Assembly: GCF_036237315.1 (NCBI RefSeq)
Contig: NZ_CP108356.1
Coordinates: 2,352,501 to 2,416,500, forward strand
From: Streptomyces sp. NBC_01351
GTDB lineage: Bacteria > Actinomycetota > Actinomycetes > Streptomycetales > Streptomycetaceae
DNA length: 64,000 nucleotides
Direction: 5' to 3'
Shown here in pieces: positions 23,194 to 30,988 of the stretch; the stretch's first letter is position 1; the number at the start of each line of letters is the position of its first letter. A program made the translations under genes and the position numbers. Under the pieces are notes generated by a model. That model ran no database searches and was not told the origin of the DNA. It worked only from the letters and a program-made list of their open reading frames with translations.

Positions 23194-26010
23194 GTGAGCG
23201 GCGATCGGAACGAGAGGCGCGGCGGGACGTGGGACGTCCCGACGGACGATCAGTCCGACGCGGAGCCCGAACTGACGGGCGAGTTCACCATCGACTACAC
23301 CCCGCCAGCCTGGTACACCCAGGGCGCGAGCCCGGCCGCGGTGCCGGGGCTGCCCGAGGGCAGCGGCTTCGAGCCCCACCGCCCGTCGGAGGTGACCTCT
23401 CCCCCGACGACGCGCATCGGCCCGCCGGCCCCGCGCCCGGCGCCCGACGCGGCGTCCGTGCCCCCGGTCCCGTCGGCCGGCACCCCCAGGCCCGACGCGC
23501 CCACCGCCCCGGCCGAGGCACTGCCGGCGTATCCGGCTCCGCCGCGGCCCCCGGCGCCCGTCGGCAGCCTGCCCGCGCCCGACGCCCCGACGGCCCCCGC
23601 CGAAGCCCTCCCGCCGTACCGGGCGCAGCCTTCGGCTCCCCTGGGCAGCACACCCGCGCCCGCCGAGGCCCCGCTGCACGCGGCCCCGGCCCCGGCCCTG
23701 CCGTCGCCGCCGGACGGGGGCGCACTCGCGCACGGCGCTTCCCCGTCGTACCCGGTTCCCGCCCCGGCCGTACCGTCGGCACCCGACGCCGGCCCCGCCC
23801 CGTTCGCGCCGACGAGCGAGGCCCTCCCGCCGTACCCGGCACCCGCCCCGACCCTGCCGCCCGCGCCGTTCGGCAGCACGCCCGACGCACCCACCGCGCC
23901 CACCGAAGCGCTCCCGCCGTACCCGGCACCGAGGGCGCTCGGCAGCGCGCCCGACGCACCCGCCGCTCCGGCCGAGGCGCTTTCGGCCTACCCCGCGGCA
24001 CTGCCTCCGGTGCCGGACTCCGGCCCCGCCGCGCCGTTCGCCCCGACGAGCGAGGCGCTCCCGGCGTACCCGGCCATCACCCCGGCCCTGCCGCCCGCGC
24101 CTCTCGGCAGCACACCGGACGCACCCACGGCACCGACCGAAGCCCTCCCGCCGTACCCGGCGCCGGCAGCGATCGGCAACACGCCCGCGCCCGCCGAGGC
24201 ACTTCCGAACTACCCCGTTCCCGCCACGGCGGCGGAGACCGACCCCGCGTCGGCGAGTGAACCGCTCCCGCCCTACCCGGCACCCGCCCCGGCCCTGCCG
24301 ACCGCGCCCCTCGGCAGCACCCCCGACGCACCCACCGCACCCACCGAAGCCCTCCCGCCGTACCCGGCGCCGGCAGCGATCGGCAACACGCCCGCCCCCG
24401 CCGAGGCACCTCCGGGCTACCCGGTATCCGCCCCGGCGGTGGCGGAGGCCGACCCCGCGCCGTTCGCGCCTCCGAGCGAGGCGCTCCCGCCGTACCCGGC
24501 GCCCGTCGCCGAGGCACCGGCTCCCGCCGTCAGGCCGCAGGACACCCCCGCCGACGGGATTCCCGTCGGGGACGCGCCGCGGGCCGACGGCGAGACCCCG
24601 TTCGGGGGACCCGGGGGTGAACTGCCGCCGCTGCCGCCCTCCTTCGCGGCCGAGGGGGGCTACCCCTACGCACCGCCGCAGGCGCACGCCCAGCCGCAGC
24701 CTCAGCCGCCCCAGCAGGCCACGCAGGCCCCACAGGCCCCACAGGCCCAGCAGCCGCAGGCGACCCCGCAGTACGACCCCCGCTCCGGCGCCCAATGGTC
24801 AACGCCCACGCACCAGTTGCCGCCGCAGCCCCACGACCCGCGCTACTCCTCCGGCCAGACCGCCGGCGGGGCGCCGCTCGGCTACACCGCCGCCGTCGAG
24901 CTCTCCTCGGACCGCCTGCTGCGCAACAAGCAGAAGCCGAAGAGCAACAACGGCGGAGGCGGCAGCCGCTTCCGGTTCGGCGGCAAGGCGGCCGAAGCGG
25001 AGCGCCAGCGCAAGCTGGAGCTGATCCGCACTCCGGTCATGTCCTGCTACCGCATCGCCGTCATCAGCCTGAAGGGCGGCGTCGGCAAGACCACGACCAC
25101 CACCGCCCTCGGCGCCACCCTCGCCACCGAGCGCCAGGACAAGATCCTGGCCATCGACGCGAACCCCGACGCCGGCACCCTCGGCCGCCGCGTCCGCCGC
25201 GAGACCGGTGCCACGATCCGGGACCTGGTCCAGGCGATCCCGTACCTGAACTCGTACATGGACATCCGCCGGTTCACCTCGCAGGCGCCCTCCGGTCTGG
25301 AGATCATCGCCAACGACGTGGACCCGGCCGTCTCGACGACCTTCAACGACGAGGACTACCGCCGCGTCATCGAGACCCTGGGCCGCCAGTACCCGATCAT
25401 CCTCACCGACTCGGGCACCGGGCTCCTCTACTCCGCCATGCGCGGGGTGCTCGACCTGGCCGATCAGCTGATCATCATCTCGACCCCGTCCGTGGACGGC
25501 GCCAGCAGCGCCAGCACCACCCTCGACTGGCTCTCCGCGCACGGGTACGCCGACCTCGTCTCCCGTTCCCTGACCGTCATCTCCGGGGTCCGTGAGACGG
25601 CCAAGACGATCAAGATCGAAGACATCGTGCAGCACTTCGAGACCCGCTGCCGCGGTGTCGTCGTGGTGCCGTTCGACGAGCACCTCGCGGCCGGCGCCGA
25701 GGTCGATCTCGACATGATGCGGCCCAAGACGCGCGAGGCGTACTTCAACCTCTCCGCGCTCGTGGCCGAGGACTTCATCCGCGCCCAGCAGCAGACCGCC
25801 CACGGCCACTGGGGTGCTCAGCAGCCCCAGCCGCACCAACAGCCCTCGTACGGCCAGCCCCAGGGCCAGCCGCAGTACCAGCAGCCGCAGCAGCCGCAGG
25901 CCCCTCAGCAGCCCTACGGCCAGCCGTACCCGCAGCCCGGCCAGCCCTGGCAGCAGCCGCAGCAGCCCCCGGCCCCCGGCCAGCCCCCGCGCGACCCGCG
26001 CCTCGGCTGA
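23194..26010 (+). CDS. Proline-rich ParA/MinD-like ATPase of the ESX locus (EspI-like)
   Basis: The 938-residue protein has three parts. Residues 1-600 are disordered and Pro/Ala-rich with many EALPPYPAP repeats. Residues about 622-870 form a deviant Walker A ATPase ([17 protein letters not shown], then [13 protein letters not shown] and [10 protein letters not shown]). The rest is a Gln/Pro-rich tail. Mycobacterial EspI has a similar proline-rich plus MinD-like plan, and the ESX location supports the comparison. The GTG start has AGGAGG in front. Within the repeat zone a 100-bp block at 24103 recurs 207 bp later (69 codons), a recent in-frame duplication. Confidence 0.88.
23500..24520 (+). 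repeat. In-frame coding repeats (EALPPYPAP type)
   Basis: Degenerate direct repeats encode motifs such as [16 protein letters not shown] followed by [11 protein letters not shown]. The best-preserved copies lie at 24103-24202 and 24310-24409, differing at only a few bases and offset by exactly 207 bp. The region forms the flexible N-terminal arm of the ATPase and should be length-variable between strains. Confidence 0.8.
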
Positions 26011-27199: not shown

Positions 27200-30100
27200 T
27201 CACGTCACATCCTGCGCGGCCCTGCCGAGGGTCTCCACCGTCCGGCGCGCGCTCGGCCCCAGCAGAGCCGCCGCCTCCGCTCCCGCCTGTGCCAACCAGC
27301 GGCCCACGACCGCCCCGAAGGCCGGGGCGGTCCGGGCCAGCTCCACCGTCCGGCGGTCGAACACCGCCGCCCCGCCGGGTGCCCGCAGCAGCTGCCGCCC
27401 GGTGCGGCGCAGCAACTCCCGCGTCCGGTCCTCGGGACGGGCCGCGGCCCCGGCCGCGAGGGAGCCGAGGAAGGCGTCGAGCACCCGCGGGTCGGCCTCC
27501 TCGCGCAGCAGTACGTCGACCAGCTCGCCACGCAGCGCGTACGAGGGCTCCCCGCCCGGAGCGGCCAGTACGGCGGCCAGCTCGGCCCTGACCCCGGTCG
27601 GGGCCGTCCGCAGCAGGTCCAGCACGAGCGGGCGTACGACGGGGCCGGCAACCGGGCCCTGCTCCAGGCGCAGCTGCACGAAGGCGGCGGCGTGCGGTGC
27701 GTCCTCGGGGCGCCGCGCCAGGTGCTCCCGTACGAGCTCGGCCGCGCGGCGCGCGAGCCCGGGCGTGGCCAGCGCGGCCAGCGCCCGCACCACCTCGCCG
27801 TCGGCCCGGGCCCGCAGGGCGTCGAACACCGCGTCCGGCTCGGGCAGCACGGGCAGGGCCGCGACCAGCGCGGAGGCGGGCAGCCGGGAGCCCCGCTCGG
27901 GGTCGCCGAAGCAGTCCAGGGCGTCCTGCAGGTAGCGGCCGCGCGTCTGCGGGTCGCGGAGCAGCGTGGCGAGGGCGCTGCCGTGCAGGGTGGCGTCGGC
28001 GGGGCGGGCGAGCAGTGCCTGGGCGGCGTAGCGCAGCAGTTCGCGGTCGGCGGGGGTGCGGACGTGGGCGGCGGTGGCGAGCCCGTACGCGGCGGCCGCG
28101 ACGCGGCGACCGGGCCGTTCGTCGTGGGCCCAGCGGTCCACGGCCCGGCACATGGCGGAGGGCTCCTCCTCGGCGAGTACGGCGAGCAGCTCGTCGGCGC
28201 GGGGGTGCGCGGCGGTCACGAGGTGCTCGGTGAGGTCGTCGAGGGCGAGCCGGCGGTGGGTGTGCAGCAGGGCCTGCGCGGCACCGGCGACGGTGGCGCC
28301 GGGGCGGCCGCGCAGTCGGCGGCCGTCGGTGAACCAGGCGCAGAGCAGCGGCTGGACCAGCTGGGGGTCCCGGGCGAGGCGGCGAGCGGCGGCGTCGAGG
28401 AAGCGGTCGCCGGGAACCGCTTCGGCGGGGTCTGCGGGCAACAGGCGGCGCAGCAGGTCGAGTCGCTCGGCCTCGGGCAGCCGCAGCCGGTTCCAGAACC
28501 ACCCGCCGAACTCGCCGGGGCCGGCGCGGGCCACGTGCTCGGCGAGCGCGTGCAGGACGGGCAGGTAGGGGTGCGCGTCGGGAGCCCGCAGCAGCACCTC
28601 CCGAACCAGCCGCCCGGCCCACCACTCCGGCCGGCCGGACGCGGCCCCCTCCCCCGCGCCCCTCGCATCCAACGCGGCCGGCCCGGGTGACCCCACCCCG
28701 TCCTGTGCGGCTTCGGGTGCCCCGCTTGCCGGTTCCGGTGGGGACGGGGGTGTGCCGGGGCGTCCCCGCAGGGCGTCGAACGCAACCATGGCCCGGCCCT
28801 CCGACCCCTGGAAGGGTTCGACGCCCCAGGAGACTCCCCGGCGCGTCCCCGGCACCGCCGGAACCACCCCGACCCAGCCCAGCCCGCTCCCGGCCACCCC
28901 GGACGGCACCGTCTGCCCCGTAGATCCGACCGACCCGACCGACCCGACCGACCCAGCCGACCCGGCGGGCCCGGGCGGCGCCGACGGGTGCTCCGTGAAG
29001 GTGTTCAGGGCCTCGACCAGGCGGGTGAGCTCGGTGCGCAGGCTGTCCGAGGGGAGCCTGTGGAGGGCCTCCAGGACCGGGCCGATGCGGTGTCGGGGTA
29101 CGGGCAGGCCCTGGCCGGCAGGTGCGTGGACGAGGGAGCGGAGGGCCGCCGGGACGTCCAGGTGAGCGCCCTGGAGCCAGTCGGAGAGCTCCTCGTGGGC
29201 GAAGCGGTAGCCGGGGCCGGCCGGTACCAGCAGCCCCTCGGTGAGTACGGCCGAGGCCCAACCCGTGCGCCAGGGGAACAGTTCCTCGAAGGCGGCCCGG
29301 TCCAGCTGCCCCTGCCCGGGTCCGAGGCAGCGCCGGGCGGCCTCGTGCACCCTGCCCGCCACCCGGGCCGCGAGCCGCCGTACGCCGCGTCCGTGGGCCC
29401 CGCCGGCCGCCGCGGCGATCCGGACGGCCACCCGCAGGGCCACCAGGTCGAGGTGCGCGGCGAAGACCTCGTCCCGGCCGGGCCGGCCGGCGGTGACCCC
29501 GGCGGCGCGGACTCCGGCGAGCAGGCGCAGGGTGAGCGGGTGCCGGGCGTCGGCCTCCCGGACGGCGTCCACCGGGATGCCGAGACGGGCCCGGGCGGTC
29601 TCGGCCTCGGCGGGGGTGAGGTCGCCGAGCGCGAGTGCGGGCCGCAGGCGGCGGGCCGGGCGGGCCGGGGTGTGCACCACCTCGGGCGGATGGAGCGCGC
29701 CGGCCACCTCCCAGTACTCGGTCCGCGCGGCGACGACGAGCCTGGCTCCGACCGCGCGCAGCCACGCCGTGGTGGCTTCGGTCCAGGGAGCCAGGCGGTG
29801 CGCGAGCCCGGGCGGCATCTCCTCCGGGGCGTCGAGCACCACGAGCAGCCCCCGCCCGGCGCCCGCGGCGACTCGCGCCACCGCCTCGGCGATGCCGGTG
29901 CCGGTGCCGTCCGGGGTGGCCGGGGGCGGGCTGGGCGGGGTCGGGGTGGTTCCGGCGGTGCCGGGGACGCGCCGGGGAGTCTCCTGGGGCGTCGAACCCT
30001 TCCAGGGGTCGGAGGGCCGGGCCATGGTTGCGTTCGACGCGCTGCGGGGACGCCCCGGCACACCCCCGTCCCCACCGGAACCGGCAGCCGCACAGGGTTG

Positions 30101-30988
30101 GGCGTCGGCTGCGGCGATACGGGTCGCCTCCGCCAGCGCGCGCGTCACCGCGTCGGCCAGGGAGGTGTCCGGGGCTCGCAGGTCCGCGCCGCGCAGCCAG
30201 AGGGTCGGGGCCGGGCGGGGGCCGCGGGAGCGGCGGGCGGCCAGGGCGGCGAGGGCCGTGGTGCGGCCCGTGCCCGGGTGCCCGGCGAGGGCGAGGACAA
30301 GGCGGTTCCCCGAGGCGAAGGCGTCGAGTTCGGCGGCGATGGCCGGCCGGTCCACGGGCGGTGGTTCGGACTCGTCCAGGGCGACGGCCGGGCCCAGGGT
30401 GGTCCCGGTGAGCTGTAGTGCGCCGGCGAGGTTCAGATCCGCCCCGTACGCCGGTACCGTCGCCGCGTTGCGGTCCAGCAGCGCGGCCAGGGGCCCACCG
30501 GGGTCGGCCGCGGCCGCCGCGCGGAGCGCCACCGCGGAGCCGCCGGCCAGGACCGCGAGCACCGCTCCGGTCTCCGCGTCGAGGACCGGGCCCCCGCACG
30601 CCTCCCCGCCCTGCCGCAGCGCGTCCCGCCCGTCGGTCCCGATCGCCAGCTCCACCACCAGTGCGCGGAGGCCCAGCACCCGGGCCTGCCGCCACCCGCG
30701 CGCGGGGACTCGTACGTACGTCCCCTGCTCGATCACCTCGCGCGTCGTGACGGGCAGCGGCCGCAGCCCGAGCCCGTCCGTCCGTACGGCCGCCAGCGCG
30801 GTCCCCCGCAGAGAGGTGACGTCCTGCGCCCCGGCCGGCCAGGTCCGGCCGGTGGGGCCGCGGACGACCATCCGGGTCAGGCCGTCGACGGCGTCGTGGC
30901 TGGTGAGCACCGTGCCGCGGTCGTCGGCGACGAATCCGCTGCCGCGCACCCGCCCGGCCTGATCGCAGATGGTGACGAGCTCCGCCAT
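27200..30988 (-). CDS. Degenerate trypsin-fold/P-loop NTPase/helical-repeat protein of 1262 residues
   Basis: Residues 1-150 follow a trypsin-fold pattern (GSGFVADDRGTVLTSHDAVDG through EACGGPVLD). However, the nucleophile position is C131 instead of Ser, the Asp position is T63, and the only nearby His (H31) is one place off. A P-loop with Arg replacing Lys (GHPGTGRT, about 236-243) and a Walker B-like stretch (GRGLLVVLDAPEE) follow. The C-terminal half is Leu/Ala-rich helical repeat of HEAT type. This is the plan of a STAND-type sensor protein. Two Pro/Gly/Ser-rich inserts, residues about 301-363 and 693-754, are encoded by inverted copies of one 185-bp repeat. Function unknown. Confidence 0.8.
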   Translation of the reverse strand: MAELVTICDQAGRVRGSGFVADDRGTVLTSHDAVDGLTRMVVRGPTGRTWPAGAQDVTSLRGTALAAVRTDGLGLRPLPVTTREVIEQGTYVRVPARGWRQARVLGLRALVVELAIGTDGRDALRQGGEACGGPVLDAETGAVLAVLAGGSAVALRAAAAADPGGPLAALLDRNAATVPAYGADLNLAGALQLTGTTLGPAVALDESEPPPVDRPAIAAELDAFASGNRLVLALAGHPGTGRTTALAALAARRSRGPRPAPTLWLRGADLRAPDTSLADAVTRALAEATRIAAADAQPCAAAGSGGDGGVPGRPRSASNATMARPSDPWKGSTPQETPRRVPGTAGTTPTPPSPPPATPDGTGTGIAEAVARVAAGAGRGLLVVLDAPEEMPPGLAHRLAPWTEATTAWLRAVGARLVVAARTEYWEVAGALHPPEVVHTPARPARRLRPALALGDLTPAEAETARARLGIPVDAVREADARHPLTLRLLAGVRAAGVTAGRPGRDEVFAAHLDLVALRVAVRIAAAAGGAHGRGVRRLAARVAGRVHEAARRCLGPGQGQLDRAAFEELFPWRTGWASAVLTEGLLVPAGPGYRFAHEELSDWLQGAHLDVPAALRSLVHAPAGQGLPVPRHRIGPVLEALHRLPSDSLRTELTRLVEALNTFTEHPSAPPGPAGSAGSVGSVGSVGSTGQTVPSGVAGSGLGWVGVVPAVPGTRRGVSWGVEPFQGSEGRAMVAFDALRGRPGTPPSPPEPASGAPEAAQDGVGSPGPAALDARGAGEGAASGRPEWWAGRLVREVLLRAPDAHPYLPVLHALAEHVARAGPGEFGGWFWNRLRLPEAERLDLLRRLLPADPAEAVPGDRFLDAAARRLARDPQLVQPLLCAWFTDGRRLRGRPGATVAGAAQALLHTHRRLALDDLTEHLVTAAHPRADELLAVLAEEEPSAMCRAVDRWAHDERPGRRVAAAAYGLATAAHVRTPADRELLRYAAQALLARPADATLHGSALATLLRDPQTRGRYLQDALDCFGDPERGSRLPASALVAALPVLPEPDAVFDALRARADGEVVRALAALATPGLARRAAELVREHLARRPEDAPHAAAFVQLRLEQGPVAGPVVRPLVLDLLRTAPTGVRAELAAVLAAPGGEPSYALRGELVDVLLREEADPRVLDAFLGSLAAGAAARPEDRTRELLRRTGRQLLRAPGGAAVFDRRTVELARTAPAFGAVVGRWLAQAGAEAAALLGPSARRTVETLGRAAQDVT
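28727..28911 (+). repeat. 185-bp repeat, copy A (inverse of copy B)
   Basis: This block reads TGCCGGTTCCGGTGGGG at its left end and GGACGGCACCG at its right end. The same 185 bp occurs in opposite orientation at 29902-30086 with only about four differences. Inside it GGCGTCGAAC and GTTCGACGCC form an internal inverted repeat. It lies wholly inside the 1262-residue gene, where it is translated (minus strand) as a Val/Gly/Pro-rich linker containing SWGVEPFQGSEGRAMVAFDA. It behaves like a small dispersed element that avoids stop codons. Confidence 0.9.
28924..28970 (+). repeat. 9-bp tandem repeat in the 1262-residue gene
   Basis: About four copies of a CCGACCGAC-type unit encode, on the minus strand, the linker GSVGSVGSVGS next to repeat copy A. 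This looks like slippage expansion inside an already flexible linker. Confidence 0.7.
29902..30086 (-). repeat. 185-bp repeat, copy B (inverse of copy A)
   Basis: Read on the minus strand, this block is copy A again, about 98 percent identical by eye over exactly 185 bp. It lies between the P-loop and the Walker B-like stretch of the host gene. There it is translated as a Ser/Pro/Arg-rich insert containing SASNATMARPSDPWKGSTPQ. The two copies use different strands and frames, yet both are open. Confidence 0.9.

What the first reader, a model, noticed from the sequence alone, without database searches (positions are those of the whole stretch)
28727..30086. Two near-identical 185-bp elements, inverted, inside one gene and both in frame
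The block at 28727-28911 and the reverse complement of 29902-30086 have the same length and differ at about four positions. Both lie in linkers of the same 1262-residue protein. They are read on opposite strands and in different frames, giving unrelated peptides (VEPFQGSEGRAMVAFDA versus NATMARPSDPWKGSTPQ), with no stop codon either way. Each has an internal inverted repeat (GGCGTCGAAC/GTTCGACGCC). This looks like a small dispersed element, perhaps a MITE or REP-like sequence, that tolerates insertion into coding DNA.
Basis: partly seen in the sequence, partly recalled or inferred. Interest (0 to 1): 0.75.

Follow-up and report, generated by a model that had tools for sequence, protein, structure and literature searches.

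The report
Streptomyces palindromic repeat inside protein genes
A 141-base hairpin-shaped repeat is scattered at least 71 times through this Streptomyces genome, mostly just after genes but sometimes in frame inside them, and the two near-identical copies in this one gene look like an old insertion that later overwrote a younger one.

Summary
In detail: 28727-28911 and the reverse complement of 29902-30086 differ at 3 of 185 bases, and both are read in frame in one 1262-aa protein. The core is a 141-bp hairpin belonging to a dispersed family: at least 71 copies in this genome (70 on the chromosome, 1 on a 215-kb contig) and copies in 13 named Streptomyces. Copies sit mainly behind stop codons and between convergent genes; 9 lie inside called ORFs (2 doubtful), among them a polyketide synthase, MalQ, a PucR regulator and this gene twice. 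No transposase with these ends, target duplication or longer relative was found, so "MITE" is unproven; it works most like Rickettsia palindromic elements. The pair's near-identity is not two fresh insertions. Copy B (29945-30085) is at the same site in two relatives, and both halves of its peptide occur in 51 of 120 homologues listed. Copy A (28728-28868) is in only 3 of 120. Own A carries B's private changes, so B most likely overwrote A by gene conversion. At sites shared with other species, copies resemble copies of their own genome more than their positional counterparts (joint AU p = 0.0005; most single sites not significant), which suggests genome-wide homogenisation in place.

The parts
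27200..30988 (-). Host gene, 1262 aa: weak trypsin-like N-terminal match, very weak AAA (P-loop) match, long variable linkers; lies between ribF and truB
   Evidence: Trypsin_2 E 2e-4 and AAA_22 E 0.24, both under the curated cut-off; many homologues named serine protease; neighbours
28728..28868 (+). Element copy A, 141 bp hairpin unit; read antisense by the gene (peptide ..RRGVSWGVEPFQGSEGRAMVAFDALRGRPGTPP..)
   Evidence: (C1:2381228-2381368, 127 bits)
28869..28911 (+). Tail shared with copy B, beyond the family unit
28702..28712 (+). CCTGTGCGGCT, also found next to copy B on the other side of the unit (here separated from the arm by 14 bp)
   Evidence: read from the sequence
29945..30085 (-). 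Element copy B, 141 bp hairpin unit; read in sense by the gene (peptide ..GGVPGRPRSASNATMARPSDPWKGSTPQETPRRVPG..); present at this place in relatives
   Evidence: (C1:2382445-2382585, 120 bits)
29902..29944 (-). Tail of copy B shared with copy A
30086..30096 (-). CCTGTGCGGCT next to copy B (minus strand; its last base is the first base of the arm)
   Evidence: read from the sequence

Best explanation
Both blocks are members of a non-autonomous, hairpin-forming dispersed element (unit about 141 bp, GC about 80%) of some Streptomyces. Shown: it is multicopy, its two arms covary, it sits mostly behind stop codons, and it also lies in frame in several proteins. Shown for this gene: an element is at site B in relatives, and at site A in few homologues, in the opposite orientation. 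Inferred: B is the older insertion and A the younger; in this lineage B overwrote A by gene conversion between the inverted copies, carrying along about 44 bp of B's flank. Inferred: the same in-place copying, or repeated replacement, keeps the family alike within each genome. Inferred: the element spreads by some copying process whose enzyme is not in view, and survives in genes because its GC-rich sequence seldom contains stops and lands in flexible linkers. In the cell it would act as a strong intergenic hairpin (terminator- or mRNA-end-like, both directions) and, in genes, as a low-complexity linker peptide.
For: 71 copies of at least 79 bits in the own genome (150 of 24,439 first-look candidates scored, so a lower bound); pattern at 58 places against 1 in the reversed control. 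Covariation: 98.1% of cells paired, 42 double changes against 16.9 in shuffles. Context of the 71: 30 convergent, 27 tandem, 4 divergent, 9 in ORFs, 1 at an edge, against 36:148:70 for neighbour pairs without an element (chi2 p 2e-9). Host genes: PKS, MbnB/TglH/ChrH family, MalQ, PucR, RDD; MalQ insert in 4 of 120 homologues listed. Gene history: site A motif in 3 of 120; both half-motifs of the site B peptide in 51 of 120 (P0001's own B reads PQET and misses the motif); CG 926 and S. virginiae ISP-5094 have B and lack A at DNA level. Conversion: A and B share 8 states seen in at most 6% of the other 69 own copies and differ at 1 element base. Own A reads SWGVEPFQ where P0002 and P0003 read SSGxERFQ; own B and the B of P0002-P0004 read PWKGS. 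Homogenisation.
Against: No clean empty site with a target duplication. No enzyme found. Orthologue B peptides differ in frame and sequence, so one old insertion behind all of them is not proved. A in P0002 and P0003 is known only as protein. AU tests of single shared sites mostly do not reject orthology (5 of 7 sets p 0.11-0.38), and paired arms make columns non-independent. Near flanks at several shared intergenic sites align poorly. In MalQ the own insert and the relatives' inserts sit on different sides of the EW..GPGG motif, and there it interrupts the MalQ_N domain rather than a linker.
Confidence: 0.8

Rival explanations
1. Two recent independent insertions of one young element (a classical MITE burst).
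For: Family is dispersed and partly young: 46 of 71 copies form one own-genome branch.
Against: The pair is not in that branch; best other copy scored is 89%. Shared tail of about 44 bp and CCTGTGCGGCT outside the unit are not explained by transposition. B is at the same site in relatives. No target duplication.
Confidence: 0.06
2. One ancient internal inverted duplication within the gene, no mobile element.
For: The 185-bp match runs past the unit, as a duplication would.
Against: 71 copies genome-wide and 13 further named organisms; A is absent in relatives that have B; A of P0002 and P0003 lacks B's private changes.
Confidence: 0.04
3. A selected regulatory or terminator hairpin (RNA level) that spreads because it is useful behind genes; in-gene copies are by-products.
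For: Excess between convergent genes; medians 30-56 nt from stop codons against 202 from starts in tandem pairs; stems with compensatory changes; mean folding energy about -106 kcal/mol in own copies.
Against: Orientation relative to transcription shows no clear preference in tandem pairs (11 same, 16 opposite). Top strand more stable than bottom in 55 of 71 own copies but not in all species. The distribution fits avoidance of promoters and genes equally. No Rfam match in the window stretch or three other loci searched. Narrow taxonomic range.
Confidence: 0.25
4. Chance similarity of GC-rich low-complexity DNA.
For: GC about 80% in the copies.
Against: 0 of 391 other genomes of the genus have the core pattern that occurs 46 times here; controls 0-1.
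Confidence: 0.01

Closest known systems
Rickettsia palindromic elements (RPE)
   Same: About 150 bp, palindromic, many copies, some inserted in frame into ORFs of unrelated genes (review PMC10969869, section 13 read).
   Different: Actinobacterial and about 80% GC; 9 of 71 copies in called ORFs against nearly half for RPE; read on both strands and in several frames; sequence relationship to RPE not tested.
ERIC (enterobacterial repetitive intergenic consensus)
   Same: Imperfect palindrome of similar length (127 bp, recalled), intergenic, sometimes intragenic; copies at 3' gene ends can alter transcript levels (passages of PMC10969869).
   Different: Other phylum, no sequence relation shown.
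REP/REPIN with RAYT transposase (GTAG) and CGTC-tagged REPs
   Same: Palindromic, repeated, some intragenic; CGTC repeats are also reported to lack a dedicated transposase (passages of PMC3733652; the words Streptomyces and Actinobacteria do not occur in its main text).
   Different: One long stem of 43 consensus pairs instead of stems of 5-13 bp; CGTC motifs lie inside the stem; no RAYT beside it.
MITEs
   Same: Short, non-autonomous, inverted-repeat, multicopy.
   Different: No target duplication, no parental insertion sequence with these ends found.

Membership tests
MITE | terminal inverted repeats | tested here: met
   whole unit is one inverted repeat, 43 consensus pairs
MITE | target site duplication | tested here: not met
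   longest direct repeat across ends 4.85 against 4.68 sd 0.18 for mismatched ends, 71 copies; the ends are uncertain by a few bases
MITE | parental IS with the same ends | tested here: inconclusive
   112 exact arm cores in the genome; the 100 listed all lie inside known copies; diverged ends would be missed
REP/RAYT | RAYT-type Y1 transposase flanked by the repeat | tested here: not met
   one Y1_Tnp match (open frame 145 aa), no element within 1.5 kb
CGTC/GTAG REP | short stem with unpaired tetranucleotide tag | tested here: not met
   long single stem; CGTC motifs lie inside the paired stem
RPE | palindromic element of about 150 bp | tested here: met
   138-141 bp in 66 of 71 copies; hairpin
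RPE | in-frame insertion into unrelated ORFs | tested here: met
RPE | sequence kinship with rickettsial families | not tested
   no RPE sequence was fetched
structured RNA of Rfam | match to a curated model | tested here: not met
   window 28500-30300 at E up to 1 and three loci at gathering score

The most novel reading that the evidence does not exclude
The family evolves in concert: dozens of 141-bp copies scattered over 7 Mb, including copies translated inside proteins, are continually rewritten by one another, so each species carries its own dialect of the element at inherited sites, and protein linkers change (even in frame, with compensating length changes) because a selfish repeat elsewhere in the genome is copied over them.
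Probability: 0.4. Interest if true: 0.8.

Novelty: new variant of a known kind. Interest (0 to 1): 0.62.

Why it matters
In-frame palindromic elements are known chiefly from Rickettsia (review PMC10969869). A GC-rich counterpart in antibiotic-producing Streptomyces, sitting between KS and AT of a polyketide synthase and in MalQ, gives a tractable system for how repeats make protein sequence. If homogenisation in place is real, it would be an unusual bacterial case of concerted evolution of dispersed short repeats and makes the copying mechanism testable. It also warns that linker peptides of such proteins can be repeat DNA.

Tried and rejected
MITE target duplications, RAYT partner, longer element with the same arms, phage origin (no match in 50,697 phage records), Rfam family. 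Strand preference of the fold was considered as a sign of RNA function and dropped: mixed between species. Six open frames were considered as a selected trait and dropped: 62 of 71 own copies against 32% of dinucleotide shuffles, but only 1 of 20 in NRRL F-2580. Empty sites at L110/L206, L143/L231+L253, L145/L242 and L174/L196 show absence but no sharp junction. The site pair L130/L200 has opposite orientation and was not counted as shared in the joint test; L109/L200 was tested alone (p 0.255) and left out of the joint test because near flanks do not align; L166/L240 was left out because that copy is truncated. For the tree I used 71 own and 33 foreign copies from a hand-picked list of matches, dropping those under 120 bp and the flavidovirens group (10 of its copies were aligned only). 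The shared sets were named from synteny after identities had been looked at, so the AU p values are optimistic. Two weak model matches (L180, L181; about 40 bits) were fetched but not counted as copies. The first alignment of copies was wrong because loci were not turned; redone. A first count of site B peptides by a narrow motif gave 48 of 120 with one false match (P0029); replaced by the two half-motifs.

Full report
What is there. The two arms exist as described. They are 185 bp, differ at 3 positions, and both lie in the 1262-aa ORF 27200-30988 on the minus strand. The gene lies between ribF and truB and has a weak trypsin-like and a very weak P-loop match, both under the curated cut-offs.

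It is a dispersed family. BLAST of the unit against the own genome gave copies over much of the chromosome, the best outside the pair 89% identical (40 of 265 candidates scored). A pattern for the two apex arms occurs at 58 places against 1 for the reversed control. A covariance model R1 built from 29 own copies finds 71 copies at 79 bits or more, 70 on the chromosome between 0.63 and 7.55 Mb and 1 on a 215-kb contig; only 150 of 24,439 first-look candidates were scored, so 71 is a lower bound. The unit is about 141 bp (138-141 bp in 66 of 71), a single long hairpin with 43 consensus pairs. Its arms covary: 98.1% of cells paired, 7 pairs and 42 cells with a change on both sides against 3.6 and 16.9 in shuffles. 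The structure was derived from the same alignment and the copies are related, so these controls are not probabilities.

Range. A stricter core pattern occurs 46 times here and in 0 of 391 other genomes of the genus. A degenerate arm pattern over one genome for each of 84,980 species gave 75 stretches in 13 named organisms, all Streptomyces (the own genome may be left out there). R1 recognises the element at E up to 1e-5 in 71 of the 76 loci given, those 75 plus the plasmid locus. Exact core counts in the 13 genomes run from 1 to 26. One further copy is on an S. lavendulae plasmid. In S. flavidovirens and its kin many matches cover only the inner part of the model.

Where copies sit. Of 71, 30 lie between convergent genes, 27 between tandem genes, 4 between divergent genes, 9 inside called ORFs, and 1 could not be placed. 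Neighbour pairs without an element in the same stretches are 36 convergent, 148 tandem, 70 divergent. In tandem pairs the median distance is 55 nt from the upstream stop and 202 nt from the next start. Gene calls are my own codon-usage calls, not an annotation. Orientation follows the replichore in 50 of 70 chromosomal copies if the origin is at the middle (Fisher p 0.001); the origin was assumed, not located.

Inside genes. Besides this gene (two copies), the element is translated between KS and AT of a type I polyketide synthase, behind the MbnB/TglH/ChrH domain of a second protein, within the MalQ N-terminal domain region, between the PucR domain and the helix-turn-helix of a regulator, and before an RDD domain. 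At N-termini it precedes a FecCD permease, a DUF4350 protein and a BTAD/NB-ARC regulator; these were not counted among the nine. Two of the nine ORFs (L109, L116) are doubtful because coding score around the element is poor. Of 120 MalQ homologues listed, 4 including the own carry the insert motif; 50 of the 120 have 29 residues in that stretch, against 86 here.

History of the pair. In an alignment of 60 of the 120 listed homologues of this protein (2424 were found), site A is 17-32 residues long in 55; the exceptions are P0001-P0004 and P0008. The element peptide motif LRGRPGT occurs in 3 of all 120 (P0001, P0002, P0003). For site B, 51 of 120 have motifs of both halves of the element peptide; others have a short linker, such as 34 residues in P0032, P0033, P0037 and P0052, or unrelated low-complexity sequence. 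At DNA level Streptomyces sp. CG 926 and S. virginiae ISP-5094 have the element at B, same orientation, and lack A. So B looks the older and A the younger insertion.

Conversion. A and B share 8 states that at most 6% of the other 69 own copies have and differ at 1 element base. B of P0001-P0004 reads PWKGS; A of P0002 and P0003 reads ERFQG with SSG before it; own A reads EPFQG with SWG before it, as B's private bases give on the other strand. The match runs about 44 bp past the unit into B's linker, and CCTGTGCGGCT is shared on the other side. The simplest reading is that B was copied over A in this lineage. This is inferred; the DNA of P0002 and P0003 was not fetched.

Homogenisation. Mean identity is 87% among own copies, 89% among 20 copies of NRRL F-2580, and 80% between the two. 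A base after GGGGCG is absent in 69 of 71 own copies and present in 20 of 20 NRRL F-2580 copies. In 12 comparisons of sites thought shared, identity to the counterpart was 75-84%, and the own copy was each time closer to another own copy. Four of the 12 were later judged unfit: L110/L224 and L174/L196 are not shared sites, L130/L200 has opposite orientation, and L153 is copy A set against B sites. In the tree 69 of 71 own copies fall on one side (support 89/86, bootstrap not settled). Forcing five shared sites to group by site costs 193 log units (AU p 0.0005); three of them in or at the start of genes cost 138 (p 2e-5); making all own copies one clade is not rejected (p 0.46). Singly, only the set with L164 apart from L153 (p 0.003, expected from the pair's identity) and L179/L221 (p 0.047) are rejected; five of seven are not (p 0.11-0.38). 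Repeated loss and new insertion at the same sites could give the same pattern.

Mechanism. Spread: unknown. No target duplication, no transposase with these ends found, no phage match. Function of intergenic copies: inferred hairpin behind genes; not shown.

Literature. No report of such a family in Streptomyces was seen in the listings of seven searches that named Streptomyces; three further searches were on Rickettsia elements and concerted evolution. Subscription papers are not covered. Seen: one section and passages of PMC10969869 and passages of PMC3733652; the rest only as listings.

Noticed in passing
L177:3001-3134 (C1:5557606), MalQ gene: In this genome the element lies after the EWVTGPGG stretch of the MalQ loop, in three relatives (P0122, P0123, P0125) before the corresponding VEW stretch: two insertions or a local rearrangement.
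   Followed up: partly
L150:3001-3138 and L142:3001-3140 (C1:5592772 and 5594015): Two copies in opposite orientation 1.2 kb apart flank an ABC-transporter ATPase gene.
   Followed up: partly
L200:41-181 against L130: At one syntenic place NRRL F-2580 has the element in the opposite orientation, some hundred bases away.
   Followed up: no
L017, L020, L024, L025 upstream flanks: Some copies have partial half-units repeated just upstream of the full unit.
   Followed up: no
window 24039-24442: 197-bp direct repeat, 86% identical, 207 bp apart, in a proline/alanine-rich ORF followed by a P-loop region that looks ParA/MinD-like by eye (the family name is recalled, not searched).
   Followed up: no
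window 27200-30988 and homologues: Among the 111 listed homologues over 1000 aa lengths run from 1035 to 1572, with much of the difference in linker size in the 60 aligned.
   Followed up: partly
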